Source: Pseudaquabacterium terrae
GTDB taxonomy: Bacteria; Pseudomonadota; Gammaproteobacteria; Burkholderiales; Burkholderiaceae_C
Length of the DNA: 64,000 nt
Reading direction: 5' to 3'
Assembly (NCBI RefSeq): GCF_013266755.1
Contig: NZ_JABRWJ010000001.1
Coordinates: 310,001-374,000 of the forward strand
Positions 14,170-41,289 of the stretch are shown piece after piece (the first letter of the stretch is position 1; each line of letters begins with the position of its first letter). The position numbers and the translations under genes are program-made. The notes under the pieces were generated by a model. The model worked only from the letters and a program-made list of their open reading frames with translations. It was not told the DNA's origin and did not search any database.

Positions 14170-17100
14170 TCACACCCACTCGTAGCGCTCGAGCCGCCCG
14201 GCCTGGTTCAGCATCACGCGGCTGCCGAGCGCGCGGATGGTCTGCAGCAGCAGTGGCGGCTCGATGCCGGTCAGCGCGTTCAGCGTCGCCAGCGTGCACG
14301 GGCCCGAGCGCAGCGCGCGCTCGACGAGCCGCTGCCGCGCCAGCGCGACCGCGGCGTCGATGGTCAGGAACTGCTGCCCCGGCCGGCCGGCGGGGCGTGC
14401 CGCGGCTTCGAGCAGGCGGCGCACGCCCAGCGGCGTCAGCGTCGGCAGCAGCGACCAGGCCAGCACCGCGGCGGCCACCGCATGCAGCGCGGCGAAGCTG
14501 CTGCCGCGCAGCGGCGCCGTGGTGCTCGGCGCGGGGCGCCGCAGCGCGCCCGCCAGCGGCGTGTTGTCGAGCGCGTCGTCCATGAAAAGGTCCGGCTTGC
14601 CGAGCCGCGCCGACCAGCTGGCATAACGCCGCACCACGCCCTCGGCGCTGGCTGCGCCGACCTGCAGCACCGCGCTGTAGGCCCCGGGCACCGGCATCGT
14701 CGCCGCGCCCGCGCCCTCGTTGCCGCCGGCGCCGATCAGCAGGCTGCGGTGCGTCATGCCGCGCAGCAGGTGGGCCTGGTAGTCCTCGCGCTGGTAGGCC
14801 TGCAGCGCGTTGATGGCGATCTCCTGGCCGTAGTCGAGCAGCACGACGTCGGGCCGGCTGCGGAACAGCCGCTCGAGCCATTCGAGCACCTGCGATTCGC
14901 TGATGCTGCCGTCCGGGTCGAAGGGCATCGGCTCGTCGACGACCATCGCCAGCGCGCCTTCGGCCAGGCCATCGGAGACGACGCGGCCGGCCACGCCGTG
15001 GTTGATCGCCGTCTGCGTCAGCGCCGCGGCGGTCTCGCTCGGGCCGATCAGGTGCGGGCCGGCGACGGCGATGCGCAGCGGCCGCTCGCCGCGGCGCCAG
15101 CGCTGCGCCGGCCGCGCATTGACGAATGCGGCAGAAGCCGGCGGGGCGATCTGCTGCACCTCGCGCTCCAGGTCGAGCGTGCCGCCGCGCTGGCGGATCA
15201 CGCGGCGTTCCAGCTCCTCCCACAGCTCGGCGCGCGCGCCCAGGCGCATCCACTGCCGCGATAGGAACTCCTCGCCATAGCGCAGCAACCCGGGCAGGCT
15301 GCGGCGGATCCAGCGCCAGCTGTCGCTCCAGGTCATCGGCGCCAGCCGCAGCTCGAACAGCTCGTCGGCATCGAGCTCGAGGAAACCGCGCAGCGAATGC
15401 GGCGCCACCAGCGCGACGCGGATCAGCCCGCGCCGATCGACCAGCAGCTGCAGCGCGGCGACCGAGGCGCGCCGCATCGTTTCCAGGTGGTTGATCAGCT
15501 GCAGGATCGTCGGGATGTCGTCGCAGCCGGCGAGCTGGTGCGCCAGCCGCTCGAAGCGCTGCTCGAAGCTCGGCGGCGCGCTCACCGCGCCGCTGCGGCG
15601 CGCCATGCTGGCCATCGCGTCGTCGGGCGCCGAGACGTCGAGCAGCACCTGGCCGAGCGCTTCGGCCAGCTGTTCGCGCCAGCGCGGCGGCAGGCCGGCC
15701 AGCGCTTCAGCCAGCTGCGCCAGCCCGTCGCCGAGCCCGTGCAGCGGGTCGCGGCGCTCGATGGGCGGCCGCAGGCCATCGCCGCCGCTGCGGCGATCGA
15801 CGCCGGGCTGGCCGGCCTGCTCGGCGTCCTCCAGCAGCAGCTGCACATTCGCCAGCAGCACCTCCAGGTCCTGCTCGATGCGCGGTTCGTCGGCGCTCTC
15901 GCGGCGCTGCGCGATCAGCTCACGCAGCCACAGCCCGACGGCGGCGCGCAGCAGGCCGCGCTGCAGCACGTCGATCTGCCCCACCTCGTCGAGCGCGATG
16001 ACGCAGCGCCGCCGCGCCAGGTCGCCGACCAGGCGCTCCCACCAGTCGAGCGCGCTCCACTGCGGCTGGCGCACCGGCCGATCGCCGGCGCGCGCCAGCA
16101 GCTCCTCGACGATGCCGCACATGCGCAGCACCAGGCCGTCGGCCGGCTGCGCGAGCAGCGCCTGCGGGTCGGGGCCCTGCGGCGTCTCGGCGGCGGCACA
16201 GGCCTCGTCGAGCACCGGCGCGATGGTGCGCGCATGCACGAACAGCACGATGCCGACGTCCGGCCCCAGCTCCTCGAGCGCGCGCTCGACCAGCGTCGAC
16301 TTTCCCGTACCCGTGGCCCCGGTGATCGCCACCACGCGCTGCCGCGCCGCGCCGCCGAGGATCTCGACCACCTGGCGCAGCGCCAGGTCACGCGCGAGGA
16401 AGCGGCCGCCCGAGGTGCGCAGGCCGAGCTTCAGCTCGATGCGGCGCACTTCTTCGACCGGCTGCGGCAGCGCGCCGCGCGGCAGCAGCGGGCCGGGGTC
16501 CTCGCCGCCGACGAAGAGCACCGGCACCGACCAGTCGAGCAGCAAGGAGCCGTGGCGCGGATCGCCATGCACCGCCCCGCGTGCGATGCGCAGCGCATCG
16601 ACCACCGAGTACCCCGAGGCCAGCCCCTGGTACAGGTAGCGCGTGAAGACGCGCTCGGTCGTCAGCGGCAGCACCGCCTGCATGCCGATGACGATCGGGC
16701 AGGCGCCTTGCACGCAGCGGTCGGCCAGGCTCAGCAGGTCGCGCCAGCCGACGGCGGCATCCTTGGCGAAGGCCAGCGGGTCGTCGCGGGCGCGCGCCGT
16801 CTCGCAGCCGGCGAAGATCGCCAGCCGCAGGTCCGGGCACAGCCGCAGCAGCTCGATCAGCCGCGCGCTCTCCACCTCCAGCGCGTGGCCGCCGTCGTCC
16901 TCCAGGATCAGCTGGTCGGGCAGCGCATGGCCGACGTAGTGGAAGACGTGATAGCCGCGCGGCCGCGACGCGATGCGCCGGCGCAGGCGGTCGACCGTCG
17001 GCCGGTCCTCGACGTCGACCTCCAGCAGCCCGGCGCGCTGCAGCGGCGCCAGCTCGGCGAGCAGGCTGCGCTTGACCTCGAAGACATCGAACTCATGACG

Positions 17101-17685
17101 CCCTTCCTGATCGGCCGCGAAACGCGGGCTCGACAGCACCAGCAGCAGGTGCAGCGGCGGGCGCACCGTGCGTGGCCGCGACGAATAGCTGCGCCCGCGC
17201 GCCTGGCGCACGATCTGCACGTCCGGCGCCAGCGCCAGGAAACGCGGCGCCAGCGGCTGCGGCGGGGCGATCGGGTCGGGCAGCAGCTCCCAGGGCAGCG
17301 CGGCGAGGTGCGGCGACGCCAGCACGCGGAACAGGATCTTGCGCCGCCGATCGGCTGCGATGCCGCGCGTGGCCTGGAACAGCTGCACGACCATCTGATC
17401 GCCGAAGACCAGCGTCTTCAGGTGCGCGGCGAGCTCGGGGTTCGGCTCGGGCTCGGCGAAGGCGATCGCGTCGGCATAGTCCCAGACCAGGTCGAGCAGC
17501 TCGTCGAGCGAAGGCAGTGCGGCATCGCGGCGCGGGATGCCGTGCACGAAGCCGGCGCTCGATTGCGCCGACAGCCAGGGCAGGCCTTCGGGGCCGAGGC
17601 TGATCGTGACGTCGAAGGGCTCGAATTCGCTGCCGCCGGCGTCGTCGTCGGGCAGGGTCGATGACGCGGGCAACATGGTGTTCAT
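14170..17685 (-). CDS. CHAT protease / P-loop NTPase / degenerate subtilase fusion
   Basis: An 1171-residue three-part protein. Residues about 170-395 are a CHAT caspase-like domain: VFHYVGHA supplies His253 and IFAGCETA supplies Cys294, the expected dyad, followed by CPIVIGMQAVLP. Residues about 430-860 are a STAND/AAA-type NTPase with Walker A GATGTGKST (456-464) and Walker B CVIALDEVG (Asp566, Glu567). Residues about 870-1095 read as a subtilisin-like S8 domain: NHGVAG (His896), IGAGGNEGAG (Asn989) and GSSFAALH (Ser1063) align with HGTxVAG, AAGN and GTSxAxP, but the aspartate of the triad appears replaced (RIAVAGPHL). The start overlaps the MBL gene stop as ATGA (17682-17685), implying coupled translation. 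Predicted NTP-dependent, protease-based sensor/effector of a conflict system; function is inferred. Confidence 0.82.
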   Translation of the reverse strand: MNTMLPASSTLPDDDAGGSEFEPFDVTISLGPEGLPWLSAQSSAGFVHGIPRRDAALPSLDELLDLVWDYADAIAFAEPEPNPELAAHLKTLVFGDQMVVQLFQATRGIAADRRRKILFRVLASPHLAALPWELLPDPIAPPQPLAPRFLALAPDVQIVRQARGRSYSSRPRTVRPPLHLLLVLSSPRFAADQEGRHEFDVFEVKRSLLAELAPLQRAGLLEVDVEDRPTVDRLRRRIASRPRGYHVFHYVGHALPDQLILEDDGGHALEVESARLIELLRLCPDLRLAIFAGCETARARDDPLAFAKDAAVGWRDLLSLADRCVQGACPIVIGMQAVLPLTTERVFTRYLYQGLASGYSVVDALRIARGAVHGDPRHGSLLLDWSVPVLFVGGEDPGPLLPRGALPQPVEEVRRIELKLGLRTSGGRFLARDLALRQVVEILGGAARQRVVAITGATGTGKSTLVERALEELGPDVGIVLFVHARTIAPVLDEACAAAETPQGPDPQALLAQPADGLVLRMCGIVEELLARAGDRPVRQPQWSALDWWERLVGDLARRRCVIALDEVGQIDVLQRGLLRAAVGLWLRELIAQRRESADEPRIEQDLEVLLANVQLLLEDAEQAGQPGVDRRSGGDGLRPPIERRDPLHGLGDGLAQLAEALAGLPPRWREQLAEALGQVLLDVSAPDDAMASMARRSGAVSAPPSFEQRFERLAHQLAGCDDIPTILQLINHLETMRRASVAALQLLVDRRGLIRVALVAPHSLRGFLELDADELFELRLAPMTWSDSWRWIRRSLPGLLRYGEEFLSRQWMRLGARAELWEELERRVIRQRGGTLDLEREVQQIAPPASAAFVNARPAQRWRRGERPLRIAVAGPHLIGPSETAAALTQTAINHGVAGRVVSDGLAEGALAMVVDEPMPFDPDGSISESQVLEWLERLFRSRPDVVLLDYGQEIAINALQAYQREDYQAHLLRGMTHRSLLIGAGGNEGAGAATMPVPGAYSAVLQVGAASAEGVVRRYASWSARLGKPDLFMDDALDNTPLAGALRRPAPSTTAPLRGSSFAALHAVAAAVLAWSLLPTLTPLGVRRLLEAAARPAGRPGQQFLTIDAAVALARQRLVERALRSGPCTLATLNALTGIEPPLLLQTIRALGSRVMLNQAGRLERYEWV

Positions 17686-18773
17686 CCCAGCTGCAGCGTC
17701 AGCCCGGCCGCGTCTTTTGGCGGGAAGACCACCTTCCAGCCGCCGGCCGCCGCGCCGTCGCGCAGCCGCTCGGTCGTCTCGCACTGGTAGTTGCAGTGAA
17801 AGCTCGGCACCTTGCGCGCCGGCATGCTGGCCGTCACCAGCGCGGCGGTCTGCACATCCGGATGGCCGAACACCGCGCCGTTGGTCGACACCAGCCAGCG
17901 CTCGCAGTCGACCAGCGCCAGCCACTCGGCGCTGACGTTGCCCATGCTGCCGTGGTGCGGCAGCTTCACCGCGTCGAGCTTCACCCGGGGCACGCCGCGC
18001 TCCAGGCACAGCCGCGCCAGGTTGGTCGCCAGCGTGCGCGCATGCGCATCGGCGCCGAAGAGCACGCGCTGGCCGTCGGCCTCGAACAGGAAGGCGATGC
18101 TCGAGCCGTTGGCGGGCGCCCGGTCGTCGCCGAAGGCGCGTGCGGAGAACACCGCGGGCCCGGTCGGCGGCCGGTACTCGCGGCGTTCGAGCAGGCGGCG
18201 GTGCGCCTCCTCGGCATCGCCGGGCGTGAAATCGCGGATCGCCGCGCTCCAGCGTGCGCGCAGCCGCTTCAGGTCCGACGGGTTCGGCCCCAGCAAGGTC
18301 AACCGCGCGCCGCCGGCGAGCTCCACCACCGGCAGCGCCGGCGCGGCCTCGGTCGGCGGCGGCACGACGACCGCGCGCTGGCCGAAGCGCTTGTTCAGCG
18401 TCTTCGCCAGCGCCGCATCGAGCCCGATCAGCGCGCCGAGGAACTCACCCTGCAGCGGCGCGAAGACATCGCGCTCGTTCGCCGGCAGATGGGCCCAGGT
18501 GTTGAACCAGACTTCGTTGATCGCCAGGCCCAGGCGGGCACGGTCCTGCAGCAGGATCAGCGCGCCGTCGATGTGGTCGGCGTCGATGTGGCTGACGACG
18601 AAGAGCTCGAGCTTGCGTTGCGCCGGCTTCAGCTTCTCGAGCTTCGCCTGCAGGCCGGCATAGGTGTGCGCCGGGCCACCGTCGATCAACACCCGGCGCC
18701 GGCCACGCGCCGGACCGTATTCGATCCAGATCGCGTCGCCGTGGGCGGCGGGCAGCAGCGTCAGGCTGAGCAT
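17682..18773 (-). CDS. ComEC-like metallo-beta-lactamase fold protein
   Basis: A 363-residue soluble protein. The start at 18773 gives MLSLTLLPAAHGDAIWIEYG, the usual opening of ComEC/Rec2-type MBL domains, where AHGDA replaces the more common GxGDA. The metal site is SHIDADHIDGA (HxDxDH), with further ligands in FGADAHARTLATN and KLPHHGSMGNVS. No membrane segments are present, unlike full ComEC. Such stand-alone proteins are repeatedly found in conflict-type loci beside NTPases or proteases and may be nucleases, phosphodiesterases or hydrolases of a nucleotide ligand. Coupled by ATGA to the CHAT gene. Confidence 0.88.
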   Translation of the reverse strand: MLSLTLLPAAHGDAIWIEYGPARGRRRVLIDGGPAHTYAGLQAKLEKLKPAQRKLELFVVSHIDADHIDGALILLQDRARLGLAINEVWFNTWAHLPANERDVFAPLQGEFLGALIGLDAALAKTLNKRFGQRAVVVPPPTEAAPALPVVELAGGARLTLLGPNPSDLKRLRARWSAAIRDFTPGDAEEAHRRLLERREYRPPTGPAVFSARAFGDDRAPANGSSIAFLFEADGQRVLFGADAHARTLATNLARLCLERGVPRVKLDAVKLPHHGSMGNVSAEWLALVDCERWLVSTNGAVFGHPDVQTAALVTASMPARKVPSFHCNYQCETTERLRDGAAAGGWKVVFPPKDAAGLTLQLG

Positions 18774-18928
18774 GTCTCGTCCAAAAGGACAGGGCGCCAC
18801 TGCAACGCAGATCGCGCGCCGCGTCAATCGCCAGTTTGGAACCGGGCTGCTCTCTCCTCAAGCCGCATGACGCGCAGCGGGCCGAAGCGCACTAGGCTGG
18901 CGCGATCGACGATCGACAGGGGGCGACG
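18774..18928. promoter_or_regulatory. divergent promoter region of the conflict island
   Basis: These 155 bases separate the divergent MBL-CHAT operon and the SLOG-tailed protein gene and must hold both promoters. I see a short inverted repeat GTCC-AAAA-GGAC at 18779-18790 and a direct repeat of GATCGAC just before the plus-strand start (about 18904-18917), followed by GGGGG as ribosome binding site. No clear -35/-10 pair could be assigned. Confidence 0.5.
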
Positions 18929-20962
18929 ATGAACTGCTTCGTGGTCAGGGGCTTCGGCGTCAAGCGCGACTCGGATGGCTGCGAGATCGACTTCGATCGC
19001 ATCCACCGCGAGCTGATCGAACCGGCCCTGCAGAAGTGCGGCATCGCCGGCGGCACGACCACGCAAGTGGTGGAGCCAGGCAACATCCAGGAGGACATGT
19101 TCCGCCTCCTGCTGCAGGCGGACCTGGTGGTGTGCGACATCACGGTGCACAACGCCAACGTCTTCTACGAGCTCGGCGTGCGCCATGCCCTTCGCAAGAA
19201 GCACACCGTGCTGATCAAGGGCAGCCCGTCGGCCGACAAGACGCCGTTCGACATCGGCGGCAACCGCTACCTCGCCTATGCCGTGGCGCAACCGGGCGCG
19301 CAGGTGGACGCGCTCGTCGCCGCGATCGAGGCCGCACGCTCGGGCTACCGTGAAACCGACAGCCCGATCTTCCTGATGCTGCCGCGCCTGCCCGAAGCGG
19401 ACACCAGCGTCGTGACGATCGTGCCGCTGGACTTCGTCGAGGAGGTTCAGCAGGCCGAAGCGAGCCGCGACAAGGGCTGGCTGCGCCTGCTGGCCGAGGA
19501 CGTGCGCGGCGAGTCATTCGAGTGGGAAGGCTCGAAGCTGATCGGCCGTGCGCAATGGTCGGTGACCGACTTCGAAGGCGCCCGCGCGACGTGGGAGGCG
19601 GTGCGCAAGCGGTCGCCGCTCGACCTCGACGCCAACCTGGCGCTGGCCAATGTCTACGAACGGCTCTACAAGCGGGAGCTCGATCCCGTGCTGCTGGAGC
19701 AATCGAACCAGGCGATCCAGAAGGTGCTCGACCGCCAGAACCTGATGCCCAAGCAGCGCTCCGAGGCGCTCGCGCTCGAGGGCCGCAACCTGAAGACGCT
19801 GTGGCGCCTGAAGTTCGACCCGCTGGAGACGCTCGATCAGCGCCGCGAGCGGGCGCTCGACATCCAGTTGAAGCAGTCGTTCGAGGCCTACCGCGATGCA
19901 TTCAACATCGACCTGAACAACTTCTTCCCGGGCATCGCGGCCTACCAGATGGGCCGCATCCTGCAGTCCATCGCCGACAGCCCCAGGTTCCAGAACCTGT
20001 TCACGCTGGGCAACCGCAAGCTCGCCGCCGAGCGCTACCGCGAAGACCTCGGCGGCCAGCTCACCGCCCTGGAACACGTCGTGCGGGCGTCGATCGAGCG
20101 CGCGCTGACCCCCGGCGCGAGCGACAGCGAGACCGCGACCTGGGCGGCCATCAGCGCCGCCGACCTGCTGTTCCTGACGGAAGGCGACGAGGCTGACGCC
20201 GGGGCGAGCGCGACCGTGCAGGCCTACGAGGCGGCGGTGCCACGCTCCGGCTTCTACTGGAACGCTGCCCGAGGCCAGCTGAAGTTGTTCGAGCAGCTGG
20301 GACTGCGCGGTGCCATGGCAAACGCCGTCATCGAACGCCTGGATGGACCGCCCGCAACGGGCGGCACGCGCAAGCCGCGTCTGGTCGTCTTCAGCGGACA
20401 CACCGTGGACCGGGGCGACGCGATCCGGCCTCGTTTCCCGAAGGGCCGGGAAGACCTCGCGCGCACGCTGATCGTCGATGGCCTGCGCAAGCTGAAGGCC
20501 GACGGCGAGCCGCTGGTCGTGCTGGTGTCGGCAGCCCCCGGGGCCGACATCCTGGCGCTGGAAGCCTGTGCAGCCGAGGGCATCGACACCTGGTTGTGTC
20601 TGCCGATGGAGAAGGACGCGGTCGCCCGGGAGGTGTTCAGCCACTACGACGACACCTGGCGCAACCGCTTCCTGGCGCTGTGGGCAGCGCATGCGAAGGG
20701 GCGCCGCCTGGTGCTGCAGCGCGGCGCTGGCCTGCCGCGCTGGCTCGCGCGTCGGGAGACGCTGACGCCATGGGAGCGCGGCAGCCGATGGATGATGCAC
20801 CTGGCCGAGTCCTGGGACTGCGAACGCCGCACGCTGCTCGCGCTGTGGGATCGCAACGAGCAGGACGGCTCGACGGCCGGCACGGCGCAGATGGTGCGGC
20901 TGGCCCGCATCGGCGCTTTCGAGATCAGCACGATCGACGCCACGCCGCTGGCCTCGCCATAG
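18929..20962 (+). CDS. NDT/TIR-like + TRAFs-binding-like + SLOG-like protein
   Basis: A 677-residue cytoplasmic protein. Residues 1-140 (MNCFVVRGFGVKRDSDG; LVVCDITVHNANVFYELGVR) match the Rossmannoid domain of the nucleoside 2-deoxyribosyltransferase/TIR-like class, with Glu81 in FYELG as the probable catalytic acid. Residues about 170-460 are helical and resemble the TPR-type TRAFs-binding region known from MAP3K5/ASK kinases and from bacterial DUF4071 proteins. Residues 482-660 (RLVVFSGHTVDRG; SAAPGADILALEACAAEG; CLPMEKDAVAREVF) look like a SLOG/LOG-type nucleotide-binding domain. Two nucleotide-handling Rossmannoid domains flanking a scaffold suggest sensing or making a nucleotide-derived signal. 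It is divergent from the CHAT/MBL operon. Family assignment is from pattern memory. Confidence 0.75.
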   Translation: MNCFVVRGFGVKRDSDGCEIDFDRIHRELIEPALQKCGIAGGTTTQVVEPGNIQEDMFRLLLQADLVVCDITVHNANVFYELGVRHALRKKHTVLIKGSPSADKTPFDIGGNRYLAYAVAQPGAQVDALVAAIEAARSGYRETDSPIFLMLPRLPEADTSVVTIVPLDFVEEVQQAEASRDKGWLRLLAEDVRGESFEWEGSKLIGRAQWSVTDFEGARATWEAVRKRSPLDLDANLALANVYERLYKRELDPVLLEQSNQAIQKVLDRQNLMPKQRSEALALEGRNLKTLWRLKFDPLETLDQRRERALDIQLKQSFEAYRDAFNIDLNNFFPGIAAYQMGRILQSIADSPRFQNLFTLGNRKLAAERYREDLGGQLTALEHVVRASIERALTPGASDSETATWAAISAADLLFLTEGDEADAGASATVQAYEAAVPRSGFYWNAARGQLKLFEQLGLRGAMANAVIERLDGPPATGGTRKPRLVVFSGHTVDRGDAIRPRFPKGREDLARTLIVDGLRKLKADGEPLVVLVSAAPGADILALEACAAEGIDTWLCLPMEKDAVAREVFSHYDDTWRNRFLALWAAHAKGRRLVLQRGAGLPRWLARRETLTPWERGSRWMMHLAESWDCERRTLLALWDRNEQDGSTAGTAQMVRLARIGAFEISTIDATPLASP

Positions 20963-21032
20963 GCTCGCACCGCCGCGCCGGTCGGGCGCCAATGCCCGGC
21001 CGGCGGTTCGCGCCCAGGACCCTCGCGCCCGA

Positions 21033-22202
21033 TCAGGCCGGCTCGTCCTTGTCGAATACAGGCGGAAAGTGAGCGGCCTGCACCTGGCGCTCGGCGATCG
21101 CTTGGCCGATCTTCTTCAGCTCGTCCAGGTTCCCGGGCTCGTCCATCACCTCCATGCCGCGCAGGTAGTCGTCGGAGACATCGCGCTCGAGTGCCGACTT
21201 GAACCAGTCCCTGTCGAACAGCGCGTTGTAGCGCTGGTAGGTCAGCATCGGGGTCTTGCCCAGCACCGGCCCAGCCAAACCCATTTCACGATCGATCCGG
21301 CGCGCGGTGTCGCTGACCGACAGCCACTGCAGCATCGCTTCGACGAGATCGCCGCAGTCCTCCATCAGGCTGTTGAGCGCCGCCACGCCCTGCAGTGCCG
21401 CCAGCCTGCTGATGTCCACCGTCGGGCTGGCCTTGCCGGTGCCGACCGAGACCAGCAGCAGCTTGTCGGCGCCGGTCTGCCAGCCGAACTCGTAGCCGCC
21501 CATCGTCACCGCCATCAGCGCATGCAGGCTCGGATTGTTGTGCGGACTGACGCCGCCGTCGACGAAGTGGCCGGTGGTGTCCCGGCGGTCGGGCCGGTCC
21601 GGCGAATGGATGGAGATCAGCTCCGGCTCGAAGAATGTGGGGGCCGCGGTGCTCGCGCGGATCACCTGCCACAGCGGGTACTCGCCGTTCGGAATGGTCG
21701 TGCTGCGGTCGTCGCCGGGCTTGAAGTACTTGGCCCGCGGGTTGTTCGTCAGCACCCAGGTGCTGCCGGTGTCGAGCCGCTTGGCGACCACCAGCAGACC
21801 GGTGCGGAAGTCGGTGCAGTTGAGCGTGCGCGTGCCGAACACGCCCTGCAGCGCCGCGGCAACCTTGTTGGCATCGAACTTGTCGCTCACGAATCCGCGC
21901 CGCCAGAAGCTGCGCTTGAACACCGTGGCGCCGAGCGCGCGATAGTGCTCCTCGATCTGATCGACCGTCATGCCGAGCGACAAGCCGCCGGCAATGATGG
22001 CACCGGTGGATGTTCCGGCGATCAGATCGAAGTAGTCGCCCAGGCAGGTGGCGCCGACGCGCTCTTTCAGCAGCGCTTCGATCTTGCGCAGCACCTGCAA
22101 GCTCAGCATGCCGCGCAGGCCACCGCCGTCGAGCGAGAGGATGCGCTTGGGCGCCGGCGCGGGCGAGAGATGCTGTTCGAAGCTGCGGAAACCGGTGCTC
22201 AT
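21033..22202 (-). CDS. patatin-like phospholipase
   Basis: A 389-residue patatin-family lipid acyl hydrolase. SLDGGGLRGMLSL is the oxyanion loop, GTSTGAII carries the nucleophile Ser, and FVDGGVSPHNNP supplies the catalytic Asp, so the Ser-Asp dyad is complete. No signal peptide or membrane helix is present, which fits a cytoplasmic lipase such as those used as membrane-attacking effectors. Start ATG 22202 is supported by AAAGGA upstream. It lies 23 bases after the peptidoglycan-binding gene on the same strand and converges on the SLOG-tailed protein gene. Confidence 0.9.
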   Translation of the reverse strand: MSTGFRSFEQHLSPAPAPKRILSLDGGGLRGMLSLQVLRKIEALLKERVGATCLGDYFDLIAGTSTGAIIAGGLSLGMTVDQIEEHYRALGATVFKRSFWRRGFVSDKFDANKVAAALQGVFGTRTLNCTDFRTGLLVVAKRLDTGSTWVLTNNPRAKYFKPGDDRSTTIPNGEYPLWQVIRASTAAPTFFEPELISIHSPDRPDRRDTTGHFVDGGVSPHNNPSLHALMAVTMGGYEFGWQTGADKLLLVSVGTGKASPTVDISRLAALQGVAALNSLMEDCGDLVEAMLQWLSVSDTARRIDREMGLAGPVLGKTPMLTYQRYNALFDRDWFKSALERDVSDDYLRGMEVMDEPGNLDELKKIGQAIAERQVQAAHFPPVFDKDEPA

Positions 22203-22225
22203 GGGGGGTCCTTTGTCAGTCGAGG

Positions 22226-23194
22226 TCAACGCACGGCATCGCGCAGGCCGATGCCGAACTGGCTTTCCAGGTCGTAGGGGATGCCGTGCACGGTTCCCTC
22301 GCCGCGCGCGATGCACAGCTTGCGCGACCGCACGTCGTCCACCCAGCGCGGATTGGCCGCCTGCGCGCGGCGATTGGCGACGATCTCCATCAGCGCCAGC
22401 TCACGCCTGTCTGGCGCCAGGCCCGGGCCGAGGTTTCGCTCGTCGGCACGAATCTGCGCCTTGACGATCGCGCTGATGCTGCCGTTCTGGACCACGATGT
22501 CGAACATCAGTGCCAGCGCCCGCTCGCTCGTCAGCCCGAACTCCCTGCACAGCGCGGCGGCGGCATCGAGCCGCTTGCCGGCGTGCCGGGTCTGGATCGC
22601 CTGGAACTCCGGCGTCCTGCCCAGCGACTTCGCGAAGCCGCGCCAGGGTTCGTGAACCGTGTGCTTGACCGGATGCTGCACCGAGCGCGCGAAGGCCATC
22701 AGCTCGTCCTTGTCGGAGTCGAGTGCGAGCTTCAGCGCCTCGAGGTGCCCGCCGAAGATGTCGCCGAGCACGTTCGGATGCTGCGTGAACATGTCCGCCA
22801 GCAGCGGCTGCAATGAGCCCTGGCCGAAGTTCCATTGCAGCACGCCGAAGCTGATGCCCTGGCCATCAAAATCGCCGCTGAGGCCGCAGAAGCACTCCGG
22901 CTCACCCGCGCCGGTTTCGAAGGAGCCGGTCAGCGCGAGGCAACGCCGGCCCAGGTCCGAATCGGTGACCCGCACCGGCGGCCGGATCTCCTCGGAGAAG
23001 AGCCGCTGCCACGTCAGCGCGCCGACGATGCCATCGGCCTCGAGCCCGACCTCGCGCTGGTACTTCGTCACTGCAGCGAAGGTGCCGCCGCCGAACTGGC
23101 CATCGACCGGGCCTGCATACACACCGAGCTCCGCCAGCTTGCGCTGCAGCCGCAGAACTTCGTCGCCGCTCGAGCCGAGCTTGTAGACCGCCAT
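22226..23194 (-). CDS. peptidoglycan-binding, lysozyme-like protein
   Basis: A 322-residue protein. Residues 3-68 form a PG_binding_1 domain (LGSSGDEVLRLQRKLAELG; VDGQFGGGTFAAVTKYQR). Residues about 80-310 form a second domain with SFETGAG, GDFDGQGISFGVLQWN and GSLQPLLADMF, resembling chitosanase/lysozyme-type glycoside hydrolases in which Glu of FETG and a downstream Asp act; the identification is tentative. No signal peptide is visible, so export would need another route (holin, T6SS or lysis). It is the first gene of a two-gene unit with the patatin. Confidence 0.75.
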   Translation of the reverse strand: MAVYKLGSSGDEVLRLQRKLAELGVYAGPVDGQFGGGTFAAVTKYQREVGLEADGIVGALTWQRLFSEEIRPPVRVTDSDLGRRCLALTGSFETGAGEPECFCGLSGDFDGQGISFGVLQWNFGQGSLQPLLADMFTQHPNVLGDIFGGHLEALKLALDSDKDELMAFARSVQHPVKHTVHEPWRGFAKSLGRTPEFQAIQTRHAGKRLDAAAALCREFGLTSERALALMFDIVVQNGSISAIVKAQIRADERNLGPGLAPDRRELALMEIVANRRAQAANPRWVDDVRSRKLCIARGEGTVHGIPYDLESQFGIGLRDAVR

Positions 23195-36485: not shown

Positions 36486-37286
36486 ATGGCTGAAAACGGT
36501 GACGACGACACCCCGGAGGGGGCCCGCGAATCACGCGGCATCCAGAGCATCGAAGTCGGCGGCCGGCTGCTGCTGGCGCTGGTGCACGCAGGGCGGCCCA
36601 TGCCGCTGAAGGACCTGGCGCGCGAGGCCGACATGACGCCGGCGAAGGCGCACCCGTACCTCGTGAGCTTCGGCAAGTTGAAGCTGATCGAGCAGGACCC
36701 GGCGAGCGGCCGTTACGGCCTGGGCGCGCTGGCGCTGCAGCTGGGCCTGATAGGGCTGCAGCAAAGCGATCCGGTGCGGCTGGCATCGGCCGAATTGCCG
36801 GCGCTGGCGCTGGCGGTCGGCCAGACGGTGGGCATCGCGATCTGGGGCAACCGCGGGCCCACCTTCGTGCGGCTGGAAGAAGGGCCGACCGCCGTGCACG
36901 TGAACATGCGCCACGGCACGGTGGTGTCGGTGCGCGGCACCGCGTCGGGCCGGCTCTTCGCCGCGTTCATGCCGCGCGACGAGGTGCTGGCCACGCTGCG
37001 CGCCGAGGCCGGCAAGGCCGTGCGCATCGAGCCGGCCTTCGAGGCCGAGCTCGCAGGCGTGCGCGAGCAGCGCTTCTCGAGCATCGTCGACGGCACGGTG
37101 CGCGGCATCACCGCACTGGCCGCGCCGGTGTTCGACGGTTTCGGGGAGATGGTGATTGCGCTGACGGCGATCGGACCGAGCGCGATCCTGGATCCGTCGC
37201 GCGACGGTGCGGCGGCACAGGCCTTGATCGGCTGCGCGGAGGGACTGTCGCGGCGCATGGGCGCGCGTCCGGCCGCGCCCACCTGA
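36486..37286 (+). CDS. IclR-family transcriptional regulator
   Basis: A 266-residue regulator. Residues about 20-80 form the winged helix-turn-helix (MPLKDLAREADMTPAKAHPYL), and the C-terminal domain has the GAF-like effector pocket (VGIAIWGNRGPTFVRLEEG; GRLFAAFMP; GITALAAPVFDGFGEMV). It is transcribed away from the MBL/monooxygenase/hmgA/fahA operon and almost certainly controls it in response to an aromatic intermediate. Family and role are firm; ligand is unknown. Confidence 0.94.
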   Translation: MAENGDDDTPEGARESRGIQSIEVGGRLLLALVHAGRPMPLKDLAREADMTPAKAHPYLVSFGKLKLIEQDPASGRYGLGALALQLGLIGLQQSDPVRLASAELPALALAVGQTVGIAIWGNRGPTFVRLEEGPTAVHVNMRHGTVVSVRGTASGRLFAAFMPRDEVLATLRAEAGKAVRIEPAFEAELAGVREQRFSSIVDGTVRGITALAAPVFDGFGEMVIALTAIGPSAILDPSRDGAAAQALIGCAEGLSRRMGARPAAPT

Positions 37287-37296
37287 CCGCGGTCGC

Positions 37297-38814
37297 TCAC
37301 TGCATCTCGTGCACGGTGTAGGTGGCGCAGTGCACGTTGCCGCCGGCACCTTCTTCGTTGTTCTGCACGTGCATGTCGACGAACAGGCTGATGAAGCCCT
37401 GCGCCTTCAAGCGATCGGCAACCATCCTGTCGACGGCATTGCGCGGGCCGAACCGCTCGTGCTGATCAGCCGCGGCCAGCGTCAAGCCGCTGCAGGCATG
37501 GATGGCGATGGGCGGCGGGCCCTCGGACGCACCCATCTCCAGGGGCTTGCCGATGTAGATGCAGTTGACGGCATTGCCATTGACGGTCGTCAGGCGCCCC
37601 TTCGGACCGCGCTTGAACCAGACCGGCAGGTGAACGATGGTCTGGCCGGCGGTGTCTTTCAACAGCGCAGCGATCGCCGTCAGTTTGGCCTGCGCCGTGG
37701 TGTTCAATGCGTCGTCGGGCAACGACCCCGGCGCCGCGCCACAGGCTTCCTTGAAGGCATCGGGACTGGCCACGAACGCCACGCCCTTCTTCGGAAAGCT
37801 CACGATCTCGTCGACGTGGCCGACGCAAAGCCAGCCGGTGTCGAGCAAGATCGCGTCGATGCTGCCGGCGAGCTGGCTCGCGAGGGCGCCAAGCACGCCG
37901 GTGCGGTTCCGTCCGTGGCCGCAGGTGCCGCTGACGAGAAACGACTGGCCGCGCCCTTCGCAGGTCAGGAAATTGCCGCCGAAGCCCAGGCTTTCCTGCG
38001 TGTCGCCCGGTGGCAGCCGCGACAGCAGGGCACCTGGCGGCGAGTCGCCGACCCACGAGCCGCCGATGTACTTGCTCGTTCCCAGGCTGACGAGCGCCTT
38101 CCTGCCGCACAGGTTGATCCAGTAGTCGCGTGCGAAGGTCGAATTGCCCTTGCCGTCAGGCAGCGGGATGCACCGCGCCTTGCACCCGGTCTGTGCCAGT
38201 GCGAATTCGACCGCCGCCCTGAGGTCCTGGAGCGATTGCTGCAGGTAGATCGCCAGCAGTGGCCAGTAGCCGGCCGCGACCGCCGTCGGGCAGGACTCGA
38301 CCACACTCGGCAGCACGTCCAGGCGCAGCGGTTCGCCGCCCCGCTCGATGCTGCCCACGCGCAGGCAACAAGGCAGATCCGCGTCCTGGGACGCGGCCTT
38401 CAGCGTGAACACCGTCGTCGTTGCGGGCACCATCGGCTCGCCTTGGCAGCTGGCCTCGGCGACCGCCGTGTCGCCCTCCAGCAGCACGAGCACTCCCTTG
38501 CCGAAGACACCGCCGCCCATCAGGAGCTCGAAGGGCGTGCCTTCCCGCGCCGGCCCCGTGACGTTGTCCTTTCCCCTGCGCAACTCGAACGCGCCCTGCG
38601 CGCCGACGTGCGCCGCGATGAGTTCCGCGAGCTCGCCTTCGGCGATCACGCGCACATCGCGGGTGAAGCGGACGGTGCATGCCTTCTCCGCCGCCGCCCA
38701 CGCGAGGGCGCTGCCGTGCGCGGACTTGGCCATCCGGGGCAGCGTGACCCAACGACAGATCAGCTGCTGCGGCCGGCCTTCGGCCACCAGCCAGACTTCC
38801 CTCAGCTCGTACAC
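37297..38814 (-). CDS. protein-arginine deiminase (PAD)-like protein, candidate T6SS cargo
   Basis: A 505-residue protein read from GTG 38814. Its C-terminal half matches the catalytic domain of protein-arginine deiminases: TGWLCVGHVDEIVSFP (His333, Asp335) parallels the GHVDEFLSF of animal PADs, GGNVHCATY places Cys496, and FARDYWINL (Asp230) gives the remaining acid; FGGNFLTCE and GVAFVASPDAF also fit. Spacing D-H of 103 and D-C of 161 residues is close to PAD4. The first 200 residues may correspond to PAD Ig-like domains or a secretion region. PADs convert peptidyl arginine to citrulline, normally calcium-dependent. It is the last gene of a unit with a DUF4123 adaptor, so delivery by a type VI system is inferred. 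No signal peptide. Confidence 0.83.
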   Translation of the reverse strand: MYELREVWLVAEGRPQQLICRWVTLPRMAKSAHGSALAWAAAEKACTVRFTRDVRVIAEGELAELIAAHVGAQGAFELRRGKDNVTGPAREGTPFELLMGGGVFGKGVLVLLEGDTAVAEASCQGEPMVPATTTVFTLKAASQDADLPCCLRVGSIERGGEPLRLDVLPSVVESCPTAVAAGYWPLLAIYLQQSLQDLRAAVEFALAQTGCKARCIPLPDGKGNSTFARDYWINLCGRKALVSLGTSKYIGGSWVGDSPPGALLSRLPPGDTQESLGFGGNFLTCEGRGQSFLVSGTCGHGRNRTGVLGALASQLAGSIDAILLDTGWLCVGHVDEIVSFPKKGVAFVASPDAFKEACGAAPGSLPDDALNTTAQAKLTAIAALLKDTAGQTIVHLPVWFKRGPKGRLTTVNGNAVNCIYIGKPLEMGASEGPPPIAIHACSGLTLAAADQHERFGPRNAVDRMVADRLKAQGFISLFVDMHVQNNEEGAGGNVHCATYTVHEMQ

Positions 38815-38817
38815 GGT

Positions 38818-39054
38818 TCAGTCCGCCTCGGCGCCGAGCAGCAGATGCTCGGCCAGCGCCAGCACATCCGGCACGTAGCGCGTGCCGCGGCTGGCGGCCA
38901 ACCGCATCGCCTCGCGCACGACACGTTCAAAGGGTTCCGCCGGTGCACTCACGGCGCCATGGCGCTCGATCAGCATCGCCTGCAGGCGGGCCCGCACCGG
39001 CGCCTGGACCGACTGCTCCAGCGCATCGAGCTGAGCGCGCCGGATGATCAGCAC
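38818..39054 (-). CDS. small protein of the DUF4123 module, 78 aa
   Basis: A 78-residue helical protein starting at GTG 39054 (VLIIRRAQLDALEQSVQ), overlapping the DUF4123 gene by seven bases and ending three bases before the PAD-like gene. Small proteins of this kind with a C-terminal YVPDVLALAEHLLLGAE pattern often sit between DUF4123 adaptors and effectors. It could be a chaperone, an adaptor extension or an immunity protein. Confidence 0.75.
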   Translation of the reverse strand: MLIIRRAQLDALEQSVQAPVRARLQAMLIERHGAVSAPAEPFERVVREAMRLAASRGTRYVPDVLALAEHLLLGAEAD

Positions 39055-39623
39055 GGCAGGGCTTCCCGGTTCGCCGCATGCGGTCCCACCACATCCGAAC
39101 GGCGCAAGTGCTGCACGCCACAGGGGTTCGCAGACTCCAGCACATAGCTGTGCACCGGCCCGAACACGCTGCACGCCTCCGCGGCCGTGCAGGTCGGCAG
39201 GTAGGCACCGAGCACGCGCGGATCGTAGAAGCGGAACATCAGCAGGCGGCCGTCCTCGTCGCGCACGCGCAGCAGCGTGCGCAGGTGCTTGCGCAACTGC
39301 TGCAGCGTGACGTCCGGCGGCGCGACCGTCAGCACGCCCCAGCTGCGGCCCCAGCCGTGCTGCAGGAACTCCCGCGTGAAGCGCACATCGGGCGCCAGGT
39401 GAACCAGGTGCGGTGCCGCCGCCCGCAGCGACGGCGACAGTGCGCCGGCGAACAAGCAGCAGCGCTCCAGGCCGGTGGCGTCGATCAGGCCGATGATGCG
39501 CGGATCGCGCGCGGCGTCGATCACCGCATGCACCTGCGGCGCGTCGAGGCGATCACCCTGCGGCCACAGGCGCGCGACCAGCGCATCGACCTGCGCGGCG
39601 GTCAGGGTCGCCGGGGAAGTCAT
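39048..39623 (-). CDS. DUF4123 type VI secretion adaptor
   Basis: A 191-residue protein with the DUF4123 (Tap/TEC) fold: VHAVIDAARDPRIIGLID, CCLFAGALSPSLRAAAPHLV, HGWGRSWGVLTVAPP, LQQLRKHLRTLLRVRDEDG and the hallmark MFRFYDPRVLGAYLP. Known members load effectors onto VgrG spikes. ATG 39623 overlaps the upstream gene's stop as ATGA. No vgrG or PAAR gene is in the window, so the matching spike must be elsewhere. Confidence 0.9.
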   Translation of the reverse strand: MTSPATLTAAQVDALVARLWPQGDRLDAPQVHAVIDAARDPRIIGLIDATGLERCCLFAGALSPSLRAAAPHLVHLAPDVRFTREFLQHGWGRSWGVLTVAPPDVTLQQLRKHLRTLLRVRDEDGRLLMFRFYDPRVLGAYLPTCTAAEACSVFGPVHSYVLESANPCGVQHLRRSDVVGPHAANREALPC

Positions 39624-40162
39624 GCGGGCTCCAGCGCGACCGCTCGCCGCCGTTCGCACTCCTCGCAGAACGGCGTGCCAAGCGCGGCCGCCCGCCGCAA
39701 CACGGCGGCCTGGCGATCCGCGTCGACAGCCACCGGCAGCGCCGGCGCGGCCGACGGCGTGGGCGCCGGCTCAGCCGCCGCAGAACGCGCCGAGCGGAGC
39801 ATCGACGGCGTTACCACCAAGGACGACACCCACGCGCGCTCGGCGCGCTGATCGTCGACCAAGCGCCGGCGCCTCAGCTCGACCAGGCGCAGCCGGCCGC
39901 GTTGCAGCAGGCGGGCGACGGCGGCATGCACCTGCGGCTCAGGCAGCCGGCCCGGTCCGCCATCGGCCGCCTCGGCCAGCGCACGCAGCCGCCGCGCGTC
40001 GCAGCGCAGCAGCCAGCGCGGCGCCGCCGACCAGGGCGACGACACACCCTCGGACCACTCGAAACGGTCGAAGCCGTCCGGCACGGGCAGCGCGACGGCT
40101 GCCCAGGCGGGCCGCAGCTCGAACTCGCGGCCGCAGTCATCGAAGCGCACGCTCAGCACCAT
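39620..40162 (-). CDS. uncharacterised protein of the DUF4123 module, 180 aa
   Basis: I do not recognise a domain. The 180-residue product opens MVLSVRFDDCGREFELRP, has a basic helical middle (LLQRGRLRLVELRRRRLVD), an Ala/Pro/Ser-rich linker, and a C-terminal LGTPFCEECERRRA with a CxxC pair that could bind zinc. Its stop overlaps the DUF4123 start, so it is the first gene of a four-gene coupled unit. Spike-associated or immunity roles are possible; nothing in the sequence decides. Confidence 0.7.
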   Translation of the reverse strand: MVLSVRFDDCGREFELRPAWAAVALPVPDGFDRFEWSEGVSSPWSAAPRWLLRCDARRLRALAEAADGGPGRLPEPQVHAAVARLLQRGRLRLVELRRRRLVDDQRAERAWVSSLVVTPSMLRSARSAAAEPAPTPSAAPALPVAVDADRQAAVLRRAAALGTPFCEECERRRAVALEPA

Positions 40163-40272: not shown

Positions 40273-41289
40273 TCAGCCGTTGCGGAAGATGAAGCTGTAG
40301 GCGTTCAACGCCGGCACGCCGCCCAGGTGCGCATACAGCACCTTCGAGCCGGCCGGGAATTCGCCGCGCCGCACCTTGTCGATCATCCCGTGCATCGACT
40401 TGCCCTCGTAGACCGGGTCGGTCAGCATGCCTTCCTGGCGCGCGCACAGGCGAATCGCCTCCAGCGTGTCCTCGCTCGGCAGGCCGTAGGCCGGTGCGGC
40501 GTAGCGCGTGTCGAGCACGACGTCCTCGGCGCGGATCTCGCGCCCCAGCTCTACCAGCTTGGCGGTCGACTGCGCGATGCGCAGGATCTGCGCGTGCGTC
40601 TGTTCGGGCGTGCCCGAGGCGTCGATGCCTATCACCCGATCGGCGCGGCCATCGGCGGCGAAACCGACGACCATGCCGGCCTGCGTGCTGCCGGTGACCG
40701 AGCAGACGACGATGTAGTCGAACTTGAAGCCGAGCGCCGCCTCTTGCGCCCGCACTTCCTCGGCGAAGCCGACGTAGCCGAGGCCGCCGAGCGGATGCTC
40801 CGAGCAGCCGGCCGGGATCGGGAACGGCTTGCCGCCGGCGCGGCGCACATCGGCCAGCGCCTCTTCCCAGCTCGGCCGGATACCGATGTCGAAGCCAGCC
40901 GGGTCGAGCCGCACGTCGGCGCCGAGGATGCGCGACATCTGGATGTTGCCGACGCGGTCGCACACCGCATCGTTGTGCTCGACCCAGTGCTCCTGCACCA
41001 GCACGCACTTCAGCCCCAGGTGCGCGGCCACCGCCGCGACCTGCCGCGTCTGGTTCGATTGCACGCCGCCGATCGACACCAGCGTGTCGCAGCCCTCGGC
41101 CAGCGCCTGCGGAATCAGGTACTCGAGCTTGCGCGTCTTGTTGCCGCCGAACGCCAGGCCGCTGTTGCAGTCCTCGCGCTTGGCGTACAGCTCGACCTCG
41201 CCGCCCAGGTGCGCGGACAGGCGCTTCAGCGGCTGGATCGGGCTCGGGCCGAAGGTCAGCGAATGGCGGGGGAAACGTTCGAGGTTCAT
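40273..41289 (-). CDS. acdS: 1-aminocyclopropane-1-carboxylate deaminase
   Basis: A 338-residue PLP enzyme splitting ACC to 2-oxobutyrate and ammonia. [20 protein letters not shown] is the AcdS start, and [13 protein letters not shown] holds the PLP lysine. The two residues that separate true ACC deaminases from D-cysteine desulfhydrases are both of AcdS type: Glu295 (PVYEGKSM) and Leu322 (YAHLGGVP). A GGAAGGAGG-like site lies upstream of 41289. Divergent from the Lrp-type regulator. It can lower plant ethylene precursors, so plant association is plausible. Confidence 0.96.

What the first reader, a model, noticed from the sequence alone, without database searches (positions are those of the whole stretch)
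37297..40162. Peptidylarginine deiminase-like protein in a DUF4123 type VI secretion module
The last gene of a four-gene overlapping unit encodes a protein with all PAD catalytic residues (Asp230, His333, Asp335, Cys496) in nearly PAD4-like spacing. The second gene is an unmistakable DUF4123 adaptor (FRFYDPRVL), whose known job is loading T6SS effectors. A deiminating effector that citrullinates target proteins in bacterial or eukaryotic competitors would be a novel toxin activity; I do not recall one described.
Basis: partly seen in the sequence, partly recalled or inferred. Interest (0 to 1): 0.85.

Follow-up and report, generated by a model that had tools for sequence, protein, structure and literature searches.

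The report
Orphan type VI module with PAD-like enzyme
A bacterium carries a small four-gene cassette that looks like a loading kit for its toxin-injecting machine, paired with an enzyme that has the active-site residues of arginine-modifying (citrullinating) enzymes, a cargo not described for that machine in the papers searched.

Summary
Four overlapping or abutting genes lie on the minus strand (40162-37297): g180, a true DUF4123 protein, a 78-aa gene, and a 505-aa protein with the Asp/His/Asp/Cys set of protein-arginine deiminases (PADs). The PAD match is local and weak: Pfam PAD 17.7 bits, cut-off 25, around WLCVGHVDE. Calcium-ligand motifs kept in 16-18 of 18 canonical PADs are absent, so calcium dependence is unlikely. 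Asp230 is the best candidate acid, unsettled by alignment. Both AlphaFold jobs failed (pLDDT 34, 37).

g180 ends ...AAALGTPFCEECERRR..., like some VgrG tails near DUF4123 (two same-genus relatives: AAQTGAPFCAVCQGC/AACQGC). The 78-aa gene weakly resembles the C-terminal lobe of DUF4123 adaptors, found near short DUF4123 genes in vgrG loci. The genome has two T6SS clusters and six VgrGs, none with that tail; this is its only DUF4123. The one relative that keeps the flanking genes together lacks the module, so it came or went as a cassette.

Best reading: a self-contained T6SS cargo cassette delivering a probably calcium-independent PAD-like deiminase. Docking, export, substrate and toxicity are untested.

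The parts
39620..40162 (-). g180: 180-aa putative carrier; body of unknown fold, VgrG-like tail near the C-terminus
   Evidence: body matches a protein in same-genus G143 beside a PG_binding_1 gene (38% over 99 aa, E 1.2e-7); tail
39656..39679 (-). GTPFCEEC tail motif of g180 (residues 162-169 of 180)
   Evidence: strict G.P[FL]C..C in 3 of 26 tails of proteins near DUF4123, 0 of 12 control VgrG tails, 0 of 316 background tails
39048..39623 (-). DUF4123 adaptor, N-lobe only (191 aa from the ATG in the ATGA overlap)
   Evidence: domain followed by only 28 aa
38818..39054 (-). g78: candidate stand-alone counterpart of the DUF4123 C-terminal lobe (78 aa, GTG start overlapping the DUF4123 stop)
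   Evidence: aligns over 78 of 78 residues with C-lobe-type genes near DUF4123 (hhalign 82%, 31% identity); profile E only 0.06-0.16
37297..38814 (-). PAD-like guanidine-modifying enzyme, putative effector (505 aa)
38329..38814 (-). N-terminal domain (residues 1-162) of the effector; no Pfam match
38125..38127 (-). Asp230 codon, candidate catalytic acid
   Evidence: spacing; alignment not decisive
37810..37818 (-). His333 to Asp335 codons inside WLCVGHVDE
37327..37329 (-). Cys496 codon, candidate catalytic nucleophile (GNVHCAT)
36486..37286 (+). IclR-type regulator, flank of the cassette (name recalled from sequence features)
   Evidence: 86% identical in G143, where it is the neighbour of the ACC-deaminase-like gene
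40273..41286 (-). ACC-deaminase/D-cysteine-desulfhydrase-like gene, other flank (name recalled)
   Evidence: 91% identical in G143

Best explanation
The four genes form a mobile, self-contained cargo cassette for a type VI secretion system encoded elsewhere in the genome. Proposed mechanism: g180 presents a VgrG-type tail (shown by sequence). The DUF4123 protein docks on that tail (inferred from published DUF4123-VgrG tail binding). The 78-aa protein supplies the effector-binding lobe that long DUF4123 adaptors carry in the same chain (weak sequence similarity plus gene order). Together they load the 505-aa protein onto the spike (inferred). After injection, its C-terminal part (about residue 163 to 505), a PAD-like guanidine-modifying hydrolase with an Asp/His/Asp/Cys centre, deiminates arginine or another guanidine group in the target cell (inferred), probably without calcium because the PAD calcium-ligand motifs are absent.
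For: Overlapping genes. DUF4123 at 101.9 bits. Two TssK genes, six VgrGs, and ClpV-like and IcmF proteins in one cluster. The only DUF4123 in the genome; 0 of its 6 VgrG tails carry G.P[FL]. VgrGs of same-genus G356 and G1160 end in AAQTGAPFCAVCQGC and AAQTGAPFCAACQGC, followed by a C-lobe-type gene and, 0.5-0.6 kb further, a short DUF4123. Same gene order with a VgrG in the g180 position in G886: VgrG - DUF4123 - C-lobe-type gene - 535-aa protein. PAD-like match far above 258 other proteins and 2000 shuffles. Empty site in G143: 70 bp between the two flanking stop codons there, 2986 bp here.
Against: No close homolog of the effector in 399 family, 399 order (overlapping samples) or 369 class genomes, in plasmids, phages or viral contigs, nor in a pattern scan of one genome for each of 84,980 species, which gave 17 distant PADs only; so no repeated genetic linkage. 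No VgrG, PAAR or immunity gene seen in the cassette. g78 similarity is weak (E 0.06-0.16). The loose tail motif is absent from 18 of 26 proteins near DUF4123, and the g180 homolog in G143 lacks the tail. Structure prediction failed. D230 is not confirmed by alignment. The empty site rests on one genome.
Confidence: 0.6

Rival explanations
1. The enzyme acts on a free small guanidine compound (as agmatine or arginine deiminases do) rather than on proteins, still delivered by T6SS.
For: The Asp/His/Asp/Cys set is shared across guanidine-modifying enzymes (recalled). PAD calcium-ligand motifs are missing and the Cys motif is GNVHCAT rather than GEVHCG[ST]N.
Against: The only Pfam match is to PAD, around DTGWLCVGHVDEIVSF, and a PAD profile confirms that stretch; no NCBIfam family matches. 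This stretch alone does not fix the substrate.
Confidence: 0.25
2. The unit is a decaying remnant of a T6SS vgrG island: VgrG lost, adaptor in two frames, effector no longer delivered.
For: No VgrG nearby; the two adaptor lobes sit in overlapping frames; only one genome was found to have the effector.
Against: All four frames are open and abut or overlap, GC3 0.88 for the three longer genes, His/Asp/Cys residues intact. Separate lobes are common: in 10 of 13 other genomes with a short DUF4123 examined, a C-lobe-type gene lies in the same cluster, though six of the ten supplied the profile's seeds.
Confidence: 0.15
3. A cytoplasmic guanidine hydrolase next to a DUF4123 gene by chance.
For: Canonical PADs elsewhere have no DUF4123 in the DNA fetched; flanking genes look metabolic (names recalled).
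Against: Overlapping genes, and presence or absence as one block at an otherwise conserved locus.
Confidence: 0.08
4. A non-catalytic member of the fold used as a binding protein.
For: Divergent sequence; catalytic Asp not settled by alignment.
Against: His333, Asp335 and Cys496 are retained in context.
Confidence: 0.1

Closest known systems
Protein-arginine deiminases (PADI/PAD, PF03068), including PADs of myxobacteria and other Deltaproteobacteria
   Same: His/Asp motif WLCVGHVDE, Cys near the C-terminus, order and rough spacing of catalytic residues
   Different: Below the Pfam cut-off; lacks the calcium-ligand motifs and GEVHCG[ST]N; N-terminal domain unmatched; DUF4123 neighbour. By eye the myxobacterial PADs start like lipoproteins and this one does not (not tested by tool)
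DUF4123 (Tap/TEC/Tla1) adaptor with cargo effector, e.g. VgrG4a-Tla1-Tle1 of Pseudomonas aeruginosa (PMC13133936, passages)
   Same: DUF4123 protein encoded with a putative effector; VgrG-tail-like sequence present
   Different: No VgrG; the tail sits on a 180-aa protein; the adaptor C-lobe appears to be a separate gene; PAD-like rather than lipase cargo; no immunity gene seen
vgrG islands with short DUF4123 plus separate C-lobe-type gene
   Same: Adaptor parts, and in G886 the same gene order
   Different: They have a VgrG and other or no identified cargo

Membership tests
PAD (PF03068) | Score above the curated cut-off (25 bits) | tested here: not met
   17.7 bits; 19.1 bits for the C-terminal part
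PAD (PF03068) | Catalytic Asp, His, Asp, Cys in order | tested here: inconclusive
   H333, D335, C496 in conserved context; D230 fits roughly by spacing but not by MAFFT
PAD (PF03068) | Calcium-binding residues of the catalytic domain (which residues: recalled) | tested here: not met
   W.QDE.[EQ] 18 of 18, DS.R 16 of 18, FGN[LM]E 17 of 18 canonical PADs; none in the window protein. PMC8826395 passages say sites 1 and 3 appear fully conserved in the representative PADI sequences compared
PAD (PF03068) | Guanidine-modifying propeller fold | tested here: inconclusive
   AlphaFold jobs failed: pLDDT 34 and 37
PAD (PF03068) | Citrullination of protein arginine | not testable with these tools
   needs an assay
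DUF4123 adaptor | DUF4123 domain above cut-off | tested here: met
   101.9 bits, cut-off 25.8
DUF4123 adaptor | C-terminal effector-binding lobe | tested here: inconclusive
   absent from the DUF4123 chain; candidate is the overlapping g78 gene
T6SS cargo effector | T6SS present in the genome | tested here: met
   TssK x2, VgrG x6, ClpV-like and IcmF proteins
T6SS cargo effector | Encoded beside a VgrG, PAAR or adaptor | tested here: met
   adaptor yes; no VgrG on this contig; PAAR not searched by model, none noticed in the gene list
T6SS cargo effector | T6SS-dependent secretion and cognate immunity | not testable with these tools
   no immunity gene identified; secretion needs an experiment

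The most novel reading that the evidence does not exclude
A calcium-independent protein-citrullinating T6SS effector, carried in a portable cassette in which a small non-VgrG protein bears a VgrG-type docking tail, so that the cassette brings its own adaptor-docking site to resident T6SS machines whose VgrGs lack it.
Probability: 0.28. Interest if true: 0.88.

Novelty: new variant of a known kind. Interest (0 to 1): 0.7.

Why it matters
If true, it adds arginine deimination to the chemistry of injected bacterial toxins, offers a PAD-like enzyme apparently free of calcium control, and suggests how orphan effector cassettes travel: they carry a docking tail separately from VgrG. The tail and lobe motifs could serve as markers to find further orphan T6SS cargo.

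Tried and rejected
Structure prediction with canonical PADs as alignment rows failed twice, so no fold search was run. Trimming the sequences to make MAFFT place D230 on the canonical acid failed: no trimming gave more than 7 of 15 rows. The alignment trimmed at residue 200 puts D230 on an Asp four residues before the canonical acid, not on it. Rejected: g78 as a Holliday-junction resolvase (Pfam 14.9 and 16 bits, cut-off 21.1) or as JetA (E 0.00067, partial), since position and profile fit the adaptor lobe better; this is a judgement, as the lobe profile's own E is 0.06-0.16. Seven weak g78 hits in other genomes of the 250 searched were not accepted; the one opened (G111) lies antisense in a 983-aa gene, the other six were not opened. 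Of three non-self g180 hits two, inside long frames of G143 and G105, were set aside. Phage, plasmid or viral origin: no accepted match.

Literature: combinations that no paper held: peptidylarginine deiminase + polymorphic toxin, deiminase + T6SS + DUF4123, protein-arginine deiminase + VgrG. Searches gave one paper each, the same one (PMC4770681, listing and start of abstract only, not opened). Searches listed nothing on such an effector in the rows shown (25 of 1,311, 12 of 185 and 10 of 1,872 papers). All this covers open-licence PMC only; older catalogues of polymorphic-toxin domains were not checked.
Full report
WHAT IS THERE. Four minus-strand genes run from 40162 to 37297. Their junctions are tight: DUF4123 starts at an ATGA overlapping the end of g180, the 78-aa gene starts at a GTG overlapping the DUF4123 stop, and the last gene starts 3 bases after the previous stop. 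DUF4123 is certain (101.9 bits). g180, the 78-aa gene and the N-terminal domain of the last protein have no accepted Pfam match.

THE PAD-LIKE PROTEIN. Pfam PAD matches at 17.7 bits, below its cut-off of 25, over residues 321-340. A profile of 15 canonical PADs that excludes the window protein scores it 21.2 bits, again on residues 321-340, against 6.3 for the next of 259 predicted proteins and 6.3 for the best of 2000 shuffles. The pattern RD...GH.DE...HC occurs only in this protein among the 259 and in 0 of 2000 shuffles, but it was written after seeing the protein. hhalign gives 96% probability for a local match (residues 322-404) and 95% for a global one. phmmer against the PDB finds nothing at E<=1 with the whole protein; with the catalytic part, PAD2 chains come at E 1.5, just behind two ferredoxin chains at 1.1. 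The canonical PADs come from 17 loci, by their titles mostly Deltaproteobacteria and myxobacteria; a profile of ten sequences that includes the window protein (A1) finds human PAD4 at 1.4e-71. H333, D335 and C496 sit in matching context. D230 is the best candidate for the first acid by spacing (103 residues to His; canonical 112-119; D257 would give 76), but MAFFT does not put it there. The motifs W.QDE.[EQ] (18 of 18 canonical PADs), DS.R (16 of 18) and FGN[LM]E (17 of 18) are absent. That these hold calcium ligands is recalled; that calcium sites 1 and 3 appear fully conserved in the representative PADI sequences compared is from passages of PMC8826395, which also counts PADIs in 69 of 16,196 proteobacterial species with proteomes.

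RARITY. BLAST finds the protein only in its own genome: 1 of 399 family genomes and 1 of 399 order genomes (the samples overlap). A profile search finds it and one canonical PAD (G1084) in 369 class genomes. A pattern scan of one genome for each of 84,980 species gave 17 distant PADs; it relies on six short peptides and could miss relatives. Plasmids, phages and viral contigs give nothing. None of the 17 canonical PAD loci, nor the G1084 locus, shows a DUF4123 in the DNA fetched.

A CASSETTE. In G143 (same genus; flanking genes 86% and 91% identical) the IclR-type and ACC-deaminase-type genes are direct neighbours, 70 bp between their stop codons; here 2986 bp separate them and hold the module. 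In the other seven same-genus loci fetched, some of them short contigs, no ACC-deaminase match was seen beside the IclR match, so the empty site rests on one genome. Direction (gain here or loss there) is not shown; rarity favours gain.

THE T6SS LINK. The genome has two TssK genes and six VgrGs, none of them on the window's contig; one cluster has ClpV-like and IcmF proteins and an Ntox15-domain protein behind a VgrG. DUF4123 occurs once in the genome, here. In a published P. aeruginosa case the DUF4123 lobe binds the VgrG tail and the C-terminal lobe binds the effector (PMC13133936, passages); DUF4123 is named as one of three characterised T6SS adaptor families (PMC10673891, passages).

g180 CARRIES A VgrG-TYPE TAIL. 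It ends AAALGTPFCEECERRRAVALEPA, the motif being residues 162-169 of 180. The loose motif G.P[FL] in the last 20 residues occurs in 8 of 26 tails of proteins near DUF4123, 0 of 12 control VgrG tails and 4 of 316 background tails; 3 of those 4 are VgrGs also counted among the 26. The strict form G.P[FL]C..C occurs in 3 of 26, 0 of 12 and 0 of 316. The motif was chosen after seeing g180. Of 31 DUF4123 loci, 4 gave no upstream frame (L043, L103, L105, L113) and 3 were dropped because the frame did not look like VgrG (L107, L111, L115); the other 24 are the longest upstream frame each, save L051 where the second was taken, and they were not each checked as VgrG by model. The VgrGs of G356 and G1160 make 26; these two were drawn as controls and moved after a DUF4123 was found near them. 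VgrGs whose ends were not reached, or that read as a wrong frame, were left out of the controls. A DUF4123 profile found none in the nine control loci scanned; the other three controls are from the own genome. None of the own genome's six VgrG tails has the loose motif. A small non-VgrG protein ending SAVTGTPFCEECET also lies beside DUF4123 in G837, in convergent orientation; its body resembles g180 only weakly (E 0.41). The G143 protein that matches the g180 body lacks the tail.

g78 LOOKS LIKE THE MISSING ADAPTOR LOBE. The window DUF4123 chain ends 28 residues after the domain, whereas several longer DUF4123 proteins continue for some 65-160 residues. In G853, G983 and G886 a separate gene beginning like g78 follows a short DUF4123 downstream of a VgrG (the G983 upstream protein was judged VgrG by eye). 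A profile from six such genes, picked by eye, has g78 as its best hit outside that gene family in 10,666 six-frame segments, but only at E 0.06-0.16, and the next hits score nearly as well; hhalign aligns 78 of 78 residues, 82% probability, 31% identity. Among those next hits are the C-terminal parts of long DUF4123 proteins (L109, L113, L108). Of 13 other genomes with a short DUF4123 examined (G053, G051, G030, G084, G062, G081, G116, G886, G837, G853, G983, G356, G1160), ten have a matching gene in the same cluster, in G356 and G1160 0.5-0.6 kb from DUF4123; six of the ten supplied the seeds. Two further short or cut frames (L114, L115) were not classed.

READING. The order tail carrier - DUF4123 - C-lobe - effector matches VgrG - DUF4123 - C-lobe-type gene - 535-aa protein in G886, with g180 in the VgrG place. 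I therefore read the unit as a portable T6SS cargo cassette with a PAD-like enzyme. Shown: genes, motifs, absence of calcium motifs, T6SS genes, empty site in one relative. Inferred: docking, loading, export, deimination, target. Whether the target is bacterial or eukaryotic is open; no immunity gene was recognised, which is compatible with a non-bacterial target or with g180 or g78 having a double role.

Noticed in passing
window 14170-23194: A run of large genes (a metallo-beta-lactamase-like start at 18827, a 677-aa gene at 18929-20962, a peptidoglycan-binding-like start at 23194) looks like another accessory island; names are by eye.
   Followed up: no
L153 6124-10239 and L154 3395-7431 (same-genus G356, G1160): T6SS clusters with a VgrG ending in GAPFC..C, a C-lobe-type gene and a short DUF4123; the window's genome has no DUF4123 outside the window module.
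   Followed up: partly
L032 8722-13265 (G143): A g180-body homolog beside a PG_binding_1 protein and a 1025-aa protein without Pfam match, possibly another effector locus.
   Followed up: partly
L036 6574-8097 (own genome, C53): An Ntox15-domain protein directly behind a VgrG in one of the genome's T6SS clusters.
   Followed up: partly
L120 4347-7530 (G837): A small GTPFCEECE-tailed protein next to DUF4123 and a run of small genes that look membrane-bound by eye.
   Followed up: partly
L121 8747-10354 (G886): A 535-aa protein in the effector position behind VgrG, DUF4123 and a C-lobe-type gene, with no Pfam or NCBIfam match.
   Followed up: partly
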